Shown here: one piece after another, positions 1 through 5,468 of the stretch
How positions within the stretch are numbered: position 1 is the first letter of the stretch
Layout of the letters: the number at the start of each line of letters is the position of its first letter
From: Glycomyces tritici
GTDB lineage: Bacteria; Actinomycetota; Actinomycetes; Mycobacteriales; Micromonosporaceae
NCBI RefSeq assembly: GCF_030403505.1
Contig: NZ_JAUEMJ010000005.1
Location: 263,504-327,503 of the forward strand
Reading direction: 5' to 3'
Length of the DNA stretch: 64,000 nt
Made by a program: the position numbers and the translations under genes
Notes under the pieces: model-generated
What the model was told of the DNA's origin: nothing
Seen by the model: the letters and a program-made list of their open reading frames with translations, nothing else
The model's database searches: none

Positions 1-67
1 GGGCTCGCGGGGGGCCCCGGAACCCCCGGGGGCCCCCCGGCGTGGGGGGGGCGCCCCCACTCCCTGG

Positions 68-99
68 CGCTCCGCGACCCCGCGAGGGGTCGCGGAGCG
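68..99 (+). terminator. Strong hairpin upstream of the YcaO genes (terminator/attenuator)
   Basis: A perfect 14-bp GC-rich inverted repeat (arms 68-81 and 86-99, loop gcga) lies 38 bp before the first YcaO gene. The preceding 60 bases are further G/C runs with weaker self-complementarity and no recognisable gene. There is no U-tract on either side. RiPP operons often carry a leaky terminator between an abundant precursor-peptide gene and its modifying enzymes, so this may be that element; the precursor would then be just left of the window. Confidence 0.55.
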
Positions 100-136
100 A
101 CCAACACCAACGTTAGCGCCATCCTCAGGAGCGTCC

Positions 137-2365
137 ATGCCGACCGACCCGACCGCCGTCGCCGCCCCGCGAGCCGAGATCCGCGCCCTCAGCGGTGAGC
201 GCGCGCTCGTCACGACCCCCACGGGCGCCTCGTTCACCGTGGACGTCGCGCCCGACGCGATGCTGCGCCTCGTCGACGCCCTGGCCGGACACCCGTCGCC
301 GCTGCTGCCCGCCGACTGGGCCGAGTCCGCCGCCGACCTGCGGGCCGCCCTGGAGTCCGGCGGCGCCTTCACCGCGCCCGAACCGGCCGGCCTCCTCGCA
401 CCGCCTGCGGCCGAACCGGTCTGGGAACCGGGCGAGGAGTCCGCGGCCGAACCCGGCGACCCGCTGCTCCTGGGCGACCCCGCCGCCGTCGACGCCCTCC
501 TCCAGGCCCTGCGCGCCCGCGGCCGCACCGCCCGCAGCATCGACCCCTCCGACTGGCAGCGGGTCATCCACCGCGCCTTCCGCACCGGCGAACTCCTCGT
601 CCACTGCGTACGCGGCGGCGACGAGGCCACGCTCGCGCTCTTCGACCGCCACTGCGCCGACGCCCGCACCCCCTGGGTCGCCGTCGAAGCGGCCCGCTCC
701 GAGATCTGGGCGGGCCCGGCCGTGACCCCCGGCGTAGGCGCGAACTACGAGGACTTCGCCGCCCGGCGGCTCGCCGCCGCCGTCGACCCCGCGGCGCACC
801 GGGCCCTGCGGACCCCCTCGCTCACCGGCGACTGCGGGCTCGCACCGCACGAGATGGGCCGCGCGTTCGACGCCCTCGCCGCACTCCTCGACGGCTCCGA
901 CGGCCTGCCCGGCGACACCGTCGCCCACATCGGCACCAACGGCGAGACCCGCACCCACCCCGTGCTGCCGCTGCCGGGCAGCGTGATCGGCTCGACCCTC
1001 CCGCACGACCCGGCCGACCTCGTCGACCCCGTCACCGGCCTCGTGCAGCGCACGCGGTTCATCGCCCACCACCCGAGCGTCCCGCCCGCGCTCGCCACCG
1101 CCCAGACCGACGTGGCCAACATGCGCCTCATCAGCCGGTGGGCCAACAACACCTCCTGCCAGGGCTCGGCCTTCGACGACCCCGGGCAGGCCGCCGCGAG
1201 CGCCGTCGGCGAGGCCGTCGAACGCTACTGCGGCAACCTCCTCGACACGCTGCCGGTCACCTACGGGTCCTATGCGGACCTGCACAAAGGCGCCATGCGC
1301 GTGCTCGACCCCGAGGACCTGGTCCTGTACTCCGACGAGCAGTACCGGACCGCGGGGTTCCCGTTCACGCCGCTGACCCGCGACCTCGACGTCCACTGGG
1401 TCCCCGGCCGCTCCCTCACCCGCAATGAACCGGTGCTGGTCCCGGCCAGCATGGTGTACGTCAACTGGTTCACCGCCGGGTACTCGGCCGCGCCCGTCAC
1501 CAACTTCTGCCCCTTCGCGGGGATCGCCGCGGGCCCGAACCTGGATTACGCGATCGTCTCCGGTCTCGAAGAGGTCATCGAGCGCCACGCGACCATGGTG
1601 TGGTGGATCAACGGCCACCCGCTGCCCGCCAGCGAGTCCACCGCGGACCTGGAGCGCCTGTGGGACGGCGTCGACCCCGCGCACGGCCAGCGGCCCTCGA
1701 TCATCATGCTCGACAACGAGTTCGGCGTCCCCGTCGCCGCCGGGGTCCTCCACAACGACGCGGACGCGTTCGTCAACGTCGGCTTCGCCTCCCGCCACAC
1801 CCCCGAGGCGGCGGTCGCGAAGGCCTGGACCGAGGCGCTCACCCTCCAGGAGGGCACCCGCGACCTGGCCGACCCGCGCGGCGCCCACTGGGCCGCGATG
1901 CGCAGCGGCGAGCTCAACAGCCGCTCTTTCAAGCCCTGGCGGGCCGACCGCCGCTACCTCGACGACTACCGCGAGGACATGCGCGACTGCGACGACCTCA
2001 TGGTCCAGCAGCAGGTCTTCCTCGACCCGCGCTCGATCGAGCGCATGGCGCACCTGCTGGAGCCCGGCGTCACCCGGTTGCTCGCCGCGACCCCTTCGCT
2101 GCCCGAGCGCACGGTGGACGCCTACCGCGCCGCCGTCGAAGCGCGCGGCCTCGAAGTGATCGTCGTCGACCTCACCACGCCCGACATCGCCTCCACCGGC
2201 ATGGCCGCCGTCCGCGTCATCGTGCCGGGCACCGTGGGCAACGCGCCCGCCGCGTTCCCGTTCCTCGGCAAGGGCGTCCTCCAGGACCTGGCCGTCCAGA
2301 ACGGCTGGCGCACTGCGCCGCTGGCGGAGTCGGCACTGAACTACTTCCCGATTCCCCATGCCTGA
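137..2365 (+). CDS. Fused E1-like/YcaO azoline-forming cyclodehydratase (RiPP/TOMM)
   Basis: 742 aa. Residues about 10-85 look like a leader-binding (RRE-type) winged-helix region. About 110-260 resemble the E1/ThiF-like partner domain of TOMM cyclodehydratases, with GPAVTPG then GANYEDFAARR where homologues usually carry CxxC zinc ligands; the cysteines are absent. About 320-742 is a YcaO domain with the expected acidic ATP/Mg motifs: SAVGEAVERYCG (about 354-365), GLEEVIERHA (about 475-484) and TEALTLQEG (about 563). The C-terminus is proline-containing (FPIPHA), as in azoline-forming YcaOs. The family uses ATP to cyclise Cys/Ser/Thr of a precursor peptide to azolines. The next gene overlaps by 8 bp, implying translational coupling. 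No precursor, dehydrogenase or peptidase is visible, so the product class is open. Confidence 0.85.
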   Translation: MPTDPTAVAAPRAEIRALSGERALVTTPTGASFTVDVAPDAMLRLVDALAGHPSPLLPADWAESAADLRAALESGGAFTAPEPAGLLAPPAAEPVWEPGEESAAEPGDPLLLGDPAAVDALLQALRARGRTARSIDPSDWQRVIHRAFRTGELLVHCVRGGDEATLALFDRHCADARTPWVAVEAARSEIWAGPAVTPGVGANYEDFAARRLAAAVDPAAHRALRTPSLTGDCGLAPHEMGRAFDALAALLDGSDGLPGDTVAHIGTNGETRTHPVLPLPGSVIGSTLPHDPADLVDPVTGLVQRTRFIAHHPSVPPALATAQTDVANMRLISRWANNTSCQGSAFDDPGQAAASAVGEAVERYCGNLLDTLPVTYGSYADLHKGAMRVLDPEDLVLYSDEQYRTAGFPFTPLTRDLDVHWVPGRSLTRNEPVLVPASMVYVNWFTAGYSAAPVTNFCPFAGIAAGPNLDYAIVSGLEEVIERHATMVWWINGHPLPASESTADLERLWDGVDPAHGQRPSIIMLDNEFGVPVAAGVLHNDADAFVNVGFASRHTPEAAVAKAWTEALTLQEGTRDLADPRGAHWAAMRSGELNSRSFKPWRADRRYLDDYREDMRDCDDLMVQQQVFLDPRSIERMAHLLEPGVTRLLAATPSLPERTVDAYRAAVEARGLEVIVVDLTTPDIASTGMAAVRVIVPGTVGNAPAAFPFLGKGVLQDLAVQNGWRTAPLAESALNYFPIPHA

Positions 2366-4172
2366 GACGCCGGTCTGGGTCTACGGCCTCGGCGGCGAGT
2401 CGCTCGTCGCCGCTGAGGACGGGTCGCGGTGGATCGTCGGCGCCGCACCCGAGGTCCTGCTGGGCCCGGACGGCGCCGACGTCATCACCGAACTCGCGGC
2501 GGCCGCGCCGGTCGCCCCGCCGGAACTCGACCGCGACGACCTGGTGCTCGACTCCTGCGAAGCGCTGCTCGCGACCGCGAACCGCGCCGCACAGGAGCTC
2601 GGCGCTCCCGACTCGCCGCCTGCGATAGCGGCCCCGCGAACCGCGGTCTGGCCCTTCGGCGGGCGCTGGCACCGGATGCGCCTCGAACCCGGCGACGCAT
2701 CGGCCGCCGCCGCCTGCCTGCGCGCCACCGTCGCCGACCCGAGCCACGCCGAAACCCTGTGCCGTCCACCGGCATCCGGACCGACGTTGAAGACCGGGGC
2801 CGCCCGCCTCGACCCGTCCCCGCCCGGCGCGCTCACCCGCTGGGAACCCGGCACCGGCACCTGGGAACCCCACCCGCTCCGGCCCGCCCCGGCCGTCGAC
2901 CCGCTCACGGGCGTCCTGCGTCGCGTCGCCGCCCGGCCGCCCGACCCCGCGCTCCCGCCGGGCTTCCGGCACCTCCACGCCGAACTGCCGTACCTCGCGA
3001 GCGTCGACACCCGCTTCCAGGTCGACGCCCTCGCCCCTGCCGGCACGTTCGACGAGGACGACGAGGCCGCCGTCCTCTCCGGGGTCGAGCACTACTGCGG
3101 CGCGTACTTCGGCCAAGGCGAGCGCCGCCTGGCCTCCCTCGCCGAACTCGAAGGCGAGCAGGCGGTCTCGATCCCCGACTGGGAACCGCACGACCCGGCC
3201 CTCCACGCCGAGCCCGGCTTCCCCTTCGCGCCGTTCCACTCCGACAGTCCCCTGTGGTGGCTGGCGGGGGAGGAGCGCGGCGGGCGCTGCTGGGTGCCGC
3301 TGAGTCTGGTCCACGTCGGCTGGCTCGAAGCCGGCCTCACCCCGGCCCAGGTCTTCCACGGGCACAACTTCACCGGCATGAAGGCCGGCCGCACCCTCGC
3401 CGAGGCCGCCGAGCGGGCCTGCGCGCACGTCGCCGCCCACGACGCCGTCGCTGTCTGGTGGCACGCGGGCCGCGAAGCCAGGCTCCCGCCCGCGCCAGTA
3501 CCGACCGCGATCCAATCCGCTTGGGGTGCAAGCAAACTCGGACTCCGGCTCCTGCAAGTGCCTTCGACCGCCGGCATCCCGGTCCGGCTCGCGGTCGTCG
3601 ACGACCCCGACCGCGACCTCGTCTCGCTCGGTTTCGCGGCCGACCGCTCCGGTGAGCGGGCCGCCGAACTCGCCGTCGTCGAAGCCCTCATCCAGCACGC
3701 CTCCGTACGCGACCTCGACTCGCCCCACAGCCTGATCCGCAACGCCGAAGCCCTCGGCAACGGCGCCGTGGCCGGCCTCGCACCGTACGACCCCTCACGC
3801 CGCTACCTGGACGCCTTCGGGCCCGGGTTCCGCGGCCTGATCGACCCGATGGGCCACGTCCAGCTCGGCCTCGACCCGCGCGTGGCCGCGCTCGTGCGGG
3901 AACGCACGACCCCCGGCGACCCGCAACCCGAAGCGCCGGAACCGGACTCGATCCGCTCCGCCCTCGAACGCGACCACCGCGTCGTCATCGTGGACGCCAC
4001 CGCCGAACGCGTCGCCGAAGCCGGCTACCGCGTCGCCCGCGCCGTCGCACCGGGCCTCGCCCGCGTCCAACCGGCCGCGTTCCCCCTTGACCCGCAGGCC
4101 CGACTCGCCACGGCCGCGTCCGCACTCGGCTGGACCGCCCCCGCCGAGACCGTCCCGTACCCGGGCTGGTGA
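2358..4172 (+). CDS. Second, degenerate YcaO-like protein
   Basis: 604 aa, starting inside the end of the first YcaO gene. Residues about 1-230 are a divergent N-terminal part; about 235-604 align by motif order with the YcaO domain of its neighbour. The ATP/Mg motifs are eroded: the first reads LSGVEHYCG (about 241-249) instead of ExxER, the second EAAERACAHVAAHD (about 347), the third VEALIQHAS (about 440). The GFPFAPF and WW signatures are kept, and the end (VPYPGW) keeps the proline-rich style. I infer a paralogue that has lost some or all ATPase function and may act as a scaffold or docking partner of the upstream enzyme. An alternative is a YcaO with different metal ligands. Confidence 0.75.
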   Translation: MPETPVWVYGLGGESLVAAEDGSRWIVGAAPEVLLGPDGADVITELAAAAPVAPPELDRDDLVLDSCEALLATANRAAQELGAPDSPPAIAAPRTAVWPFGGRWHRMRLEPGDASAAAACLRATVADPSHAETLCRPPASGPTLKTGAARLDPSPPGALTRWEPGTGTWEPHPLRPAPAVDPLTGVLRRVAARPPDPALPPGFRHLHAELPYLASVDTRFQVDALAPAGTFDEDDEAAVLSGVEHYCGAYFGQGERRLASLAELEGEQAVSIPDWEPHDPALHAEPGFPFAPFHSDSPLWWLAGEERGGRCWVPLSLVHVGWLEAGLTPAQVFHGHNFTGMKAGRTLAEAAERACAHVAAHDAVAVWWHAGREARLPPAPVPTAIQSAWGASKLGLRLLQVPSTAGIPVRLAVVDDPDRDLVSLGFAADRSGERAAELAVVEALIQHASVRDLDSPHSLIRNAEALGNGAVAGLAPYDPSRRYLDAFGPGFRGLIDPMGHVQLGLDPRVAALVRERTTPGDPQPEAPEPDSIRSALERDHRVVIVDATAERVAEAGYRVARAVAPGLARVQPAAFPLDPQARLATAASALGWTAPAETVPYPGW

Positions 4173-4357
4173 CGCGACCTTCGCCTCGGGCCGACCGCGC
4201 CCGTCCGGTCGCGGTGAGCACCTGTCGGGTTCATTGTCGGCCACCGGAACCGTGTCGGCGCGTCACGTCTCGTCACGTGGCGAGCCGGACCACGCGGTGA
4301 CCCGAACGCGAGCGCCGCCATGACTGCGCCCGACCCAGAGCGGCGAAGTGTGGCCGA

Positions 4358-4657
4358 ATCGCCGCGCCCTCGCTCGCCCCAGCCGTCGCCGGGACCGCAC
4401 TCCAGTCGGCAGGCCACGCGGTCACCGCCGCAGCCGTCACCGCGCTCTTCATCCGCAGCGGCGGACCGGTGCGTTCAGCGGCGCTGAGCGTCAACGCCGC
4501 CGCGATGGCCTTCGGCACCTTCGCAGGCGCGAGCCTCGGCGGCGCCGGACTCGCGCTCTTCGGCTACCCCGGTATCGCTGCGGCCCTGGCGCTCCCGCTC
4601 CTCGCCGCACTCGTCATCGCCGCCGCCCTCGCCTGGCGCACCAGGCCGGACCGGTGA
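4358..4657 (+). pseudogene. C-terminal remnant of an MFS transporter
   Basis: An open frame ending at 4657 encodes roughly 100 residues of membrane protein: AVAGTALQSAGHAVTAAAV, the loop SGGPVRSAALSVNAAAM, then GTFAGASLGGAGLALFGYPG and a final hydrophobic helix ending WRTRPDR. This is the pattern of the last helices of a drug-efflux MFS protein. No N-terminal two thirds exists upstream, where the YcaO gene ends at 4172. It is probably a decayed exporter, perhaps once linked to the RiPP locus. 4173-4357 holds nothing I can identify. Confidence 0.65.
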
Positions 4658-4658
4658 G

Positions 4659-5468
4659 TCAGCGCCCGTACCGCGATTCGAGCCAGGCGACGGCGAACGC
4701 CACCACGGCCGCTGCCTCGACGAGCACACTGTCGGCGTCCCCGATGCGGCCCCGCCGACCCGCGCCCGTCGCGAGATGGTCCTCCACGATCTGCCCGAAG
4801 TAGTCCTCCGCAGGCCCGGGCACGACCGGTCGGCTCGTGTCGAACTCCTCGACCGTGCGCCAGCGCGTGCCCTCCGGCGTCGCGAACGGGTACTCGACCC
4901 TGATGCGGCGCTTGCCCGGGAGCACGGCCAGGTGCTCGGCGTGGTGCAGGATCGTCATCGTGTCGAGCGGCGCGCCGACCATGAGCACCCGCCCGCCCGC
5001 CGCCACCAGGCGCGCGAACGGCGAACCCTCCCCGTACCCGTAGTCGAGCGGATGGTCGGCCGTGAACTCCTCGGCGCGGGCGCCGACCGCCGCCACCGAG
5101 GCCCCCGGATTACCGCTGCGGCGCACACCCTGACGCGTCCCGATCACGGACGCCAGCACCCCGTGGTCGCGCGCCGGCCGGGCCGTCGCCGGGTCGAAGG
5201 GCGGCACGTGCTCGCGCAGCCCCTCCACGACCCGGCCGTCGTCGTCCCAGACGTCGACGCTCAACTCCCAGTCCTGGTAGCCCAGCACCGTCCCTTGCGG
5301 ACCGATGACGTCCAGCATCGCGTCGACCAGCGCATCCGGGCCGCCGAGGACCGGCCCGACGCGCCCGAACGCCGCGTGGACCATCACGGCATCGCCCTCG
5401 GCCAGGCCGAGCCGCCGCAGGTCGGCGGCCAGGTCCGATCGTGTCAGCACCCGGGGAGTCTCGCTCAT
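4659..5468 (-). CDS. AAC(3)-family aminoglycoside N-acetyltransferase-like protein
   Basis: 269 aa, the usual length for the antibiotic N-acetyltransferase (AAC(3)/YokD) family, which transfers acetyl from acetyl-CoA to the 3-amino group of 2-deoxystreptamine drugs. The N-terminus (MVHAAFGRVG.VLGGPDALVDAM) and the family signature region (GVLASVIGTRQGVRRSGNP then LDYGYGEGSPFARLVAAGG and LMVGAPLDTMTILHHAEH) are clear. The conserved acidic/His residues of the acetyl-CoA site (GAPLDTMT..HHAEH) are present. It overlaps the upstream regulator gene by one base, so the two are probably co-transcribed. Substrate is not predictable: many actinomycete members are housekeeping relatives without strong resistance. 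Confidence 0.85.
   Translation of the reverse strand: MSETPRVLTRSDLAADLRRLGLAEGDAVMVHAAFGRVGPVLGGPDALVDAMLDVIGPQGTVLGYQDWELSVDVWDDDGRVVEGLREHVPPFDPATARPARDHGVLASVIGTRQGVRRSGNPGASVAAVGARAEEFTADHPLDYGYGEGSPFARLVAAGGRVLMVGAPLDTMTILHHAEHLAVLPGKRRIRVEYPFATPEGTRWRTVEEFDTSRPVVPGPAEDYFGQIVEDHLATGAGRRGRIGDADSVLVEAAAVVAFAVAWLESRYGR

What the first reader, a model, noticed from the sequence alone, without database searches (positions are those of the whole stretch)
68..4172. Edge of an azole/azoline RiPP locus with tandem overlapping YcaO genes
A fused E1-like/YcaO gene is followed by a second YcaO paralogue starting 8 bp inside it. The E1-like part lacks the usual CxxC cysteines (YEDF at that place). 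A perfect 14-bp hairpin lies just upstream, as often found between a precursor gene and its enzymes. Known fused cyclodehydratases usually work alone or with a dehydrogenase; a fused enzyme plus a second full-length YcaO is uncommon. The class of product cannot be told from this half.
Basis: partly seen in the sequence, partly recalled or inferred. Interest (0 to 1): 0.75.

Follow-up and report, generated by a model that had tools for sequence, protein, structure and literature searches.

The report
Zinc-regulated peptide cluster with inactive YcaO
The window begins inside a bacterial gene cluster that probably makes a small ribosomal peptide when zinc runs short, using one apparently working modifying enzyme and a partner that has lost its ATP-binding residues.

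Summary
Window 137-2365 encodes a fused E1-like/YcaO protein (Y1); Y2 (2358-4172) overlaps it by 8 bp; a perfect 14-bp hairpin lies at 68-99. The RiPP reading holds, but not as a classical azole locus. In 10 of 10 related Y1-Y2 loci with readable context, a 36-43-aa precursor precedes Y1, with a paired ABC exporter and a divergent FecBCD-type importer. The core (LAPNxxxHxH..xTxFxW) is Cys-free; no dehydrogenase gene was seen. This resembles the streptamidine (ami) family, but with a fused enzyme and an extra protein. Two points look new. Y2 is a conserved pseudo-YcaO: equivalents of E. coli YcaO E75, R79, E202 and R203 are lost in every scorable one of 39 sequences, while 80 of 80 Y1 keep them. 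And all 10 divergent promoters carry a Zur-type palindrome, which in the same genomes also precedes znuABC, cobW-type and alternative ribosomal-protein genes. Streptamidine-type loci carry it too. Best explanation: a zinc-starvation RiPP, probably a zincophore. Product, zinc binding and a Y1-Y2 complex are not shown. The window's own precursor and promoter lie left of base 1 and are inferred from relatives.

The parts
1..67 (.). left edge of the window: GC-rich DNA, probably part of the gap between the precursor gene (left of base 1) and Y1
   Evidence: sequence; position by comparison with 9 related loci whose precursor-Y1 gaps are 78-199 bp (some Y1 starts there were set by eye)
68..99 (+). 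perfect 14-bp hairpin (68-81 with 86-99) between the inferred precursor and Y1
   Evidence: similar arm sequence in the precursor-Y1 gap of L001; strong GC-rich fold in all 9 gaps folded
137..2365 (+). Y1: fused E1-like/YcaO cyclodehydratase, 742 aa, ends PIPHA
   Evidence: keeps the equivalents of EcYcaO E75, E78, R79, E199, E202, R203
176..358 (+). N-terminal part of Y1 (residues 14-74), three strands then helices, RRE-like by topology only
   Evidence: secondary structure of the model, pLDDT about 92; no profile hit, so inferred
440..994 (+). E1-like domain of Y1 (residues 102-286), without the CxxC cysteines
1004..2362 (+). YcaO domain of Y1 (residues 290-742) with intact nucleotide-binding motifs
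2358..4172 (+). Y2: pseudo-YcaO, 604 aa, overlaps Y1 by 8 bp
2373..2603 (+). N-terminal part of Y2 (residues 6-82), three strands then helices as in Y1, RRE-like by topology only
   Evidence: inferred
3078..3092 (+). Y2 residues 241-245 (SGVEH) at the place of E75..R79 of E. coli YcaO
3426..3440 (+). Y2 residues 357-361 (HVAAH) at the place of E199..R203 of E. coli YcaO
4155..4169 (+). C-terminal PYPGW of Y2 (Y1 proteins end PxPHA in 77 of 79)
   Evidence: YPGW in 39 of 39 Y2 sequences; the shorter Y2 of L099 and L100 end WPGW

Best explanation
This is the enzyme end of a zinc-starvation RiPP cluster related to the streptamidine (ami) family. Inferred working: when zinc is short, Zur leaves a divergent promoter. 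One side makes a FecBCD-type importer; the other makes a two-subunit ABC exporter, a 36-43-aa precursor, Y1 and Y2. The RRE-like start of Y1 binds the leader, and the YcaO domain of Y1 uses ATP to activate a backbone amide of the core LAPNxxxHxH..xTxFxW, giving an azoline at the conserved Thr or an amidine. Y2 keeps the YcaO fold but not the Mg-ATP ligands; it most likely acts as a structural partner of Y1 that helps hold leader or core. The product is exported, binds zinc through its Asn/His-rich core and returns through the importer. Shown here: gene order, precursor and Zur-type box in relatives, loss of the ATP residues in Y2. Inferred: the chemistry, the Y1-Y2 complex, zinc binding and re-import. 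My probabilities: RiPP cluster 0.95; Zur control of this branch 0.88; Y2 without canonical ATP chemistry 0.9; zincophore 0.55; Y2 as obligate partner of Y1 0.5.
Against: The window itself holds no precursor, transporter or Zur box; its best site by the matrix scores 8.1. Russell et al. detected no metal binding by streptamidine, zinc included, and no phenotype of the amiD mutant under metal starvation (PMC8442711). Eight of 33 loci scanned have no site above their shuffle maximum: L071, L075, L076, L104, L154, L155, L156, L161; none of the last four shows a Y2. Of 17 regions fetched around sites, 5 show no zinc gene that I could recognise (L128, L129, L130, L136, L137), three of these with perfect sites. 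The best NCBIfam matches of the L006 importer are F420-0, haem, corrinoid and Fe-dicitrate models, all under cut-off; the zinc model AztA scores less. Y2 evolves faster than Y1 and is shorter at its start in L099 and L100.
Confidence: 0.6

Rival explanations
1. The cluster is zinc-controlled, but the product is a signal or an inhibitor of competitors made under zinc shortage, not a carrier of zinc. The importer serves immunity, salvage or sensing.
For: Streptamidine showed no metal binding and its null mutant no phenotype under metal starvation (PMC8442711). The authors themselves raise signalling.
Against: An exporter pair plus a FecBCD-type importer sits in 10 of 10 pair loci (gene; domains confirmed by profile in L001, L002, L003 and L006 in part). 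The core is almost invariant across families, unlike diversifying toxins. No antibacterial or antifungal activity was found for streptamidine.
Confidence: 0.27
2. Y2 is a catalyst with a new, ATP-independent or metal-dependent chemistry in the remodelled pocket, not a structural partner.
For: Former ligand positions are His in most Y2 (R79 to H 36 of 37; E199 to H 35 of 39; R203 to H 30 of 39, Q 8); D362 and the C-terminal YPGW are invariant in A1.
Against: R203 varies (H, Q, S), and L002 has R at the E199 place. No structure with a ligand exists.
Confidence: 0.2
3. The palindrome is bound by another Fur-family regulator, so the metal is iron, nickel or manganese.
For: The importer's best profile matches are not zinc models; Fur-family boxes resemble each other (recalled).
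Against: Sites of the same kind precede ZnuA, CobW-type and ribosomal-paralogue genes in the same genomes, and published actinobacterial Zur sites have the same form (PMC2823685, passages).
Confidence: 0.07
4. Ordinary azole/azoline (LAP/TOMM) locus with a duplicated cyclodehydratase.
For: TIGR03604 above cut-off for Y1; one conserved Thr in the core. A second fused cyclodehydratase is reported for some thiopeptide clusters (PMC4603692, passages).
Against: No Cys in 68 precursors, no dehydrogenase gene seen in the 10 pair loci (gene calls of 23, 47, 91 read by eye), Y2 has no canonical ATP site.
Confidence: 0.12

Closest known systems
Streptamidine (ami) family, Russell et al. 2021, PMC8442711 (read: parts 1-4 of 5)
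   Same: FecBCDE-like importer, paired ABC exporter, short precursor with an LA....H stretch, YcaO with an E1-like partner. A Zur-type site above the shuffle maximum was found here in 7 of 7 ami-type loci (L069, L070, L102, L103, L157, L158, L159; the last two are near-copies from one genome)
   Different: ami has a standalone YcaO with separate AmiB, a hydrolase AmiC and often a dehydrogenase AmiE (the paper says many clusters lack AmiB, AmiX and AmiE). This branch has fused Y1 and Y2, no ALV, and core LAPN..H.H..xTxFxW. That study searched standalone YcaO only.
Cyanobactin-type fused heterocyclases TruD, LynD, MusD
   Different: no CxxC in the E1-like part; paired with a pseudo-YcaO
Two-YcaO ami relatives (Frankia, Rhodococcus, Clavibacter subset of PMC8442711; here probably L067, L068, L076, L101)
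   Same: two adjacent YcaO genes, FecBCD-type genes nearby
   Different: both YcaOs keep the ATP residues in L067, L068, L076; Y2 does not group with their second YcaOs
Thiopeptide clusters with an additional fused cyclodehydratase (PMC4603692, passages)
   Same: more than one YcaO-type enzyme in one cluster
   Different: other product class; no loss of the ATP site is stated in the passages seen
Zur-controlled metallophores coelibactin and EDDS (review PMC6103462, passages)
   Same: a biosynthetic cluster under Zur in actinomycetes
   Different: those are not ribosomal peptides (recalled)

Membership tests
RiPP cluster with YcaO cyclodehydratase | precursor gene next to the enzyme genes | tested here: met
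   10 of 10 pair loci with readable context; not testable in the window itself, cut at base 1
RiPP cluster with YcaO cyclodehydratase | YcaO with intact nucleotide-binding residues | tested here: met
   Y1: 80 of 80, the window plus 79 of the 120 proteins listed
Azole/azoline RiPPs (LAP/TOMM) | Cys/Ser/Thr-rich core | tested here: not met
   no Cys in 68, one conserved Thr
Azole/azoline RiPPs (LAP/TOMM) | azoline or azole in the product | not testable with these tools
   needs mass spectrometry
Streptamidine (ami) family | FecBCDE-like importer and two ABC exporters | tested here: met
Streptamidine (ami) family | precursor with motif A or B, both with ALV (22 of the family's peptides lack both motifs) | tested here: not met
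   no ALV in 68 precursors; ami-type loci L102, L103, L157-L159 have it
Streptamidine (ami) family | standalone YcaO | tested here: not met
   Y1 is fused
Streptamidine (ami) family | hydrolase AmiC | tested here: not met
   none seen in the gene calls of the 10 pair loci, read by eye
Streptamidine (ami) family | amidine product | not testable with these tools
   no product known
YcaO superfamily (Y2) | YcaO fold | tested here: met
YcaO superfamily (Y2) | canonical ATP-binding residues | tested here: not met
Zur regulon | Zur-type palindrome in the promoter | tested here: met
   10 of 10 divergent promoters of relatives; window promoter not available
Zur regulon | Zur binding and zinc response | not testable with these tools
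   needs gel shift and expression data
Metallophore | metal binding of the product | not testable with these tools
   needs the purified product

The most novel reading that the evidence does not exclude
A ribosomal zincophore class: zinc-starvation peptides made under Zur control, spanning this branch and the streptamidine relatives, here built by a two-part machine of an active YcaO and a dedicated pseudo-YcaO. In its boldest form the His-substituted pocket of the pseudo-YcaO itself senses or delivers zinc.
Probability: 0.4. Interest if true: 0.87.

Novelty: new variant of a known kind. Interest (0 to 1): 0.74.

Why it matters
The role of streptamidine-type peptides was left open by their discoverers, who tested metals without success (PMC8442711). 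A Zur-type box near the genes gives a direct, testable reason for their spread and says when to look: under zinc starvation. A conserved YcaO that has lost its ATP ligands would be a kind of partner in YcaO enzymes that my searches of an open-access library did not turn up, and a tool to dissect how these enzymes hold their substrates.

Tried and rejected
Housekeeping YcaO: rejected, because the 7 genomes first found each have two YcaO matches, lying side by side, and a precursor lies beside them in the six with readable context. Y2 as a copy of the second YcaO of two-YcaO ami relatives: not supported, since those of L067, L068 and L076 keep the ATP residues and Y2 is a separate clade. Y2 and E. 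coli YcaO are long branches, so the deep placement of Y2 is unsure. Y2 as a decaying pseudogene: not supported (dN/dS 0.33-0.46; 39 of 39 share the C-terminus), though a remnant exists in L098.

The first motif was drawn from the RiPP promoters themselves, so I rebuilt it from other zinc genes and tested it on loci fetched later. The training sites were chosen by me, from 9 of the 17 fetched regions, those with zinc genes recognised. L153 was new to the matrix, but its Y1 and Y2 proteins were in A2 and A1. Only 10 shuffles per locus were used, so no fine P values are given. Over 33 loci scanned, 25 had a site above their shuffle maximum and 8 did not.

Rows dropped: 7 of 46 proteins (P0040-P0046, 724-801 aa, Y1-like in length) were left out of the Y2 count; the 39 kept include the window's own Y2. 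From, 79 of the 120 listed (162 found) were used. L007 was left out of the pair count because its contig starts inside Y1.

Literature: 211 papers, 25 listed; (pseudo-YcaO terms) 0; 1 paper, not read; 176 papers, 20 listed; (Zur with YcaO) 4, judged by title and abstract start; (streptamidine) 12, only PMC8442711 read; 9 papers, judged by title and abstract start. None of those listed is on a zinc-regulated YcaO peptide by title. Most subscription papers are not held. The ligand residues of E. coli YcaO are recalled from Dunbar et al. 2014 (not held), apart from E202A and the general statement on ATP-binding residues in PMC13063428 (passages).

Full report

Y2 is a pseudo-YcaO. I aligned Y1 and Y2 with E. 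coli YcaO. At the equivalents of E75, E78, R79, E199, E202 and R203, all 80 Y1 sequences used keep the E. coli residue. Among 39 Y2 sequences (the window's included) E75 is lost in 37 of 37 scorable (2 gaps), R79 in 37 of 37, E199 in 38 of 39, E202 in 39 of 39 and R203 in 39 of 39; E78 is kept by 5, the window among them. R79 has become His in 36 and E199 His in 35. Three other positions looked at (184, 187, 191) differ from E. coli in most Y1 too and say nothing. In E. coli YcaO, replacing ATP-binding residues impairs the reaction (PMC13063428, passages); which residues these are I recall from Dunbar et al. 2014. All 39 Y2 end in YPGW, while 77 of 79 Y1 end in PxPHA. Y2 is one clade (SH-aLRT 99). 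Its dN/dS is 0.33-0.46 against 0.22-0.28 for Y1 in five species pairs, by a simple count. So Y2 is kept by selection but probably cannot use ATP in the known way.

The missing half, from relatives. The window's genome is not held, so I used related loci. Seven came from one scan of genome contigs, one of them cut off at its start (L007), and more from whole genomes. Ten loci hold the Y1-Y2 pair with readable context: L001-L006, L066, L099, L100, L153. In all ten my gene calls show the same order: ATPase, substrate-binding protein and permease of a FecBCD-type importer on one strand; on the other a two-subunit ABC exporter, a short gene, Y1 and Y2. Pfam confirms FecCD, Peripla_BP_2, ABC_tran and ABC_membrane domains for L002 and Peripla_BP_2 for L001 and L003. 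In L006 the NCBIfam matches are all under cut-off: F420-0, haem, corrinoid and Fe-dicitrate transporter models for the importer, CydD/CydC for the exporter. The short gene encodes 36-43 aa; a profile of nine found 68 proteins, 61 at E up to 6e-5 and 7 weaker. In their alignment L-A-P is present in 68 of 68, N in 67, H in 67, F in 66, T in 60 and W in 58; none has Cys or ALV. The precursor-Y1 gap holds a strong hairpin in all nine gaps folded, and that of Glycomyces salinus (L001) has nearly the same arm sequence as the window hairpin. Hence the precursor of the window very probably lies just left of base 1.

Zinc control. The divergent promoters of the pair loci share a palindrome close to TGANAAYSRTTNTCA. 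In nine genomes this pattern (up to one mismatch) occurs 58 times, against 8 for the reversed pattern. I fetched 17 regions around such sites. Nine show zinc-type genes: cobW-type genes with alternative ribosomal proteins (L123, L126, L131, L134, L138), znuABC sets (L124, L127) and AztD-like genes (L122, L125). Pfam confirms L28, L31, L33, S14 and CobW_C in L123, CobW in L126 and ZnuA in L124 and L127; the rest are by eye. Three more show transporters of related kind (L132, L133, L135), and five show no gene that I could tie to zinc (L128, L129, L130, L136, L137). The zinc genes are those of the known actinobacterial Zur regulon, and the published Zur sites of C. glutamicum and S. coelicolor have the same form (PMC2823685, passages). 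I then trained a matrix only on the nine zinc regions plus one published site. It ranks the divergent promoter first in the whole locus in 7 of 9 pair loci, second in L006 and fourth in L004, which has three other strong sites. In the later-fetched pair locus L153 it is again first. In L006 the cluster sits between type B ribosomal-protein genes and an AztD gene, both confirmed by profile.

The streptamidine link. Russell et al. described clusters with FecBCDE genes, two ABC transporters, a short precursor and a standalone YcaO; the product is the amidine peptide streptamidine, of unknown role (PMC8442711). Seven loci here are of that kind by gene order, and the five with a readable precursor show HLSxxH or a close variant and ALVENPF (L102, L103, L157, L158, L159). 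All seven (with L069 and L070) have a Zur-type site above their shuffle maximum, rank 1 in six and rank 2 in L070; L158 and L159 are near-copies from one genome and not independent, and in L158 the site lies before the importer genes, as the other side is off the contig. In L157 the core is HLSATH, as in streptamidine itself; the site overlaps the end of the upstream ATPase frame as called, shortly before the precursor, with ribosomal-protein-like frames nearby (by eye). Five relatives with further YcaO arrangements also have one (L067, L068, L072, L073, L101), as do L074, L098 and L160; L071, L075, L076, L104, L154, L155, L156 and L161 do not. L160 is telling: one Zur-type site, then a cobW-type gene, an LAPNSNHHSH precursor, Y1, exporters and importer in one direction, without Y2. 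So Y2 is an addition in one branch, while zinc control appears wider.

What it is not. It does not meet the definition of an azole/azoline RiPP core (no Cys, one conserved Thr). Of the ami features it lacks the ALV motif (which 22 peptides of that family lack as well), the standalone YcaO and a visible AmiC; absence of AmiB or AmiE alone would not exclude it, since the paper says many clusters lack them. It works like an ami-type system but is best called a separate branch of the same kind.

Limits. No product, no binding data and no expression data exist. The negative metal tests on streptamidine count against a zincophore, although the isolated peptide may be a fragment and this branch has a more His-rich core. 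Rarity: Y1 at E up to 1e-100 in 8 of 396 genomes of one order, two of them fragments or broken; Y2 as a strong match next to Y1 in 5 of 221, 2 of 61 and 1 of 299 genomes of three families, these centred on known carriers and so not unbiased. Gene starts in my calls are approximate.

Noticed in passing
window 4659-5468 (-): 269-aa frame matching Pfam Antibiotic_NAT (aminoglycoside 3-N-acetyltransferase), 209.6 bits.
   Followed up: partly
window about 4318-4657 (+): Stretch that by eye looks like the tail of a membrane transporter without a full frame, just after Y2; not tested.
   Followed up: no
L098 (G374, same genus as L001): Only a C-terminal remnant of Y2 (about 100 aa) was found, with a Zur-type site nearby (score 25.0): the cluster seems to be decaying or lost in that species.
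   Followed up: partly
L133 and L004 (G004 contig C34): Six Zur-type sites within about 37 kb, beside a second FecBCD-like set, a cobW-type gene and an oligopeptide-type importer: a possible zinc island around the RiPP cluster.
   Followed up: partly
L158, L159 (G741): Near-identical streptamidine-type clusters on two contigs of one genome; one search lists a third place.
   Followed up: no
P0219-P0224, P0227: Precursor variants with HHPGxH or HHPAVH and no Trp at the usual place, some named from Schaalia and Mobiluncus.
   Followed up: no
L101 3852-4040 (in the reversed orientation): Precursor with two tandem repeats of a core ending NALVHNPFAF, like the multi-motif precursors described for the ami family.
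   Followed up: no
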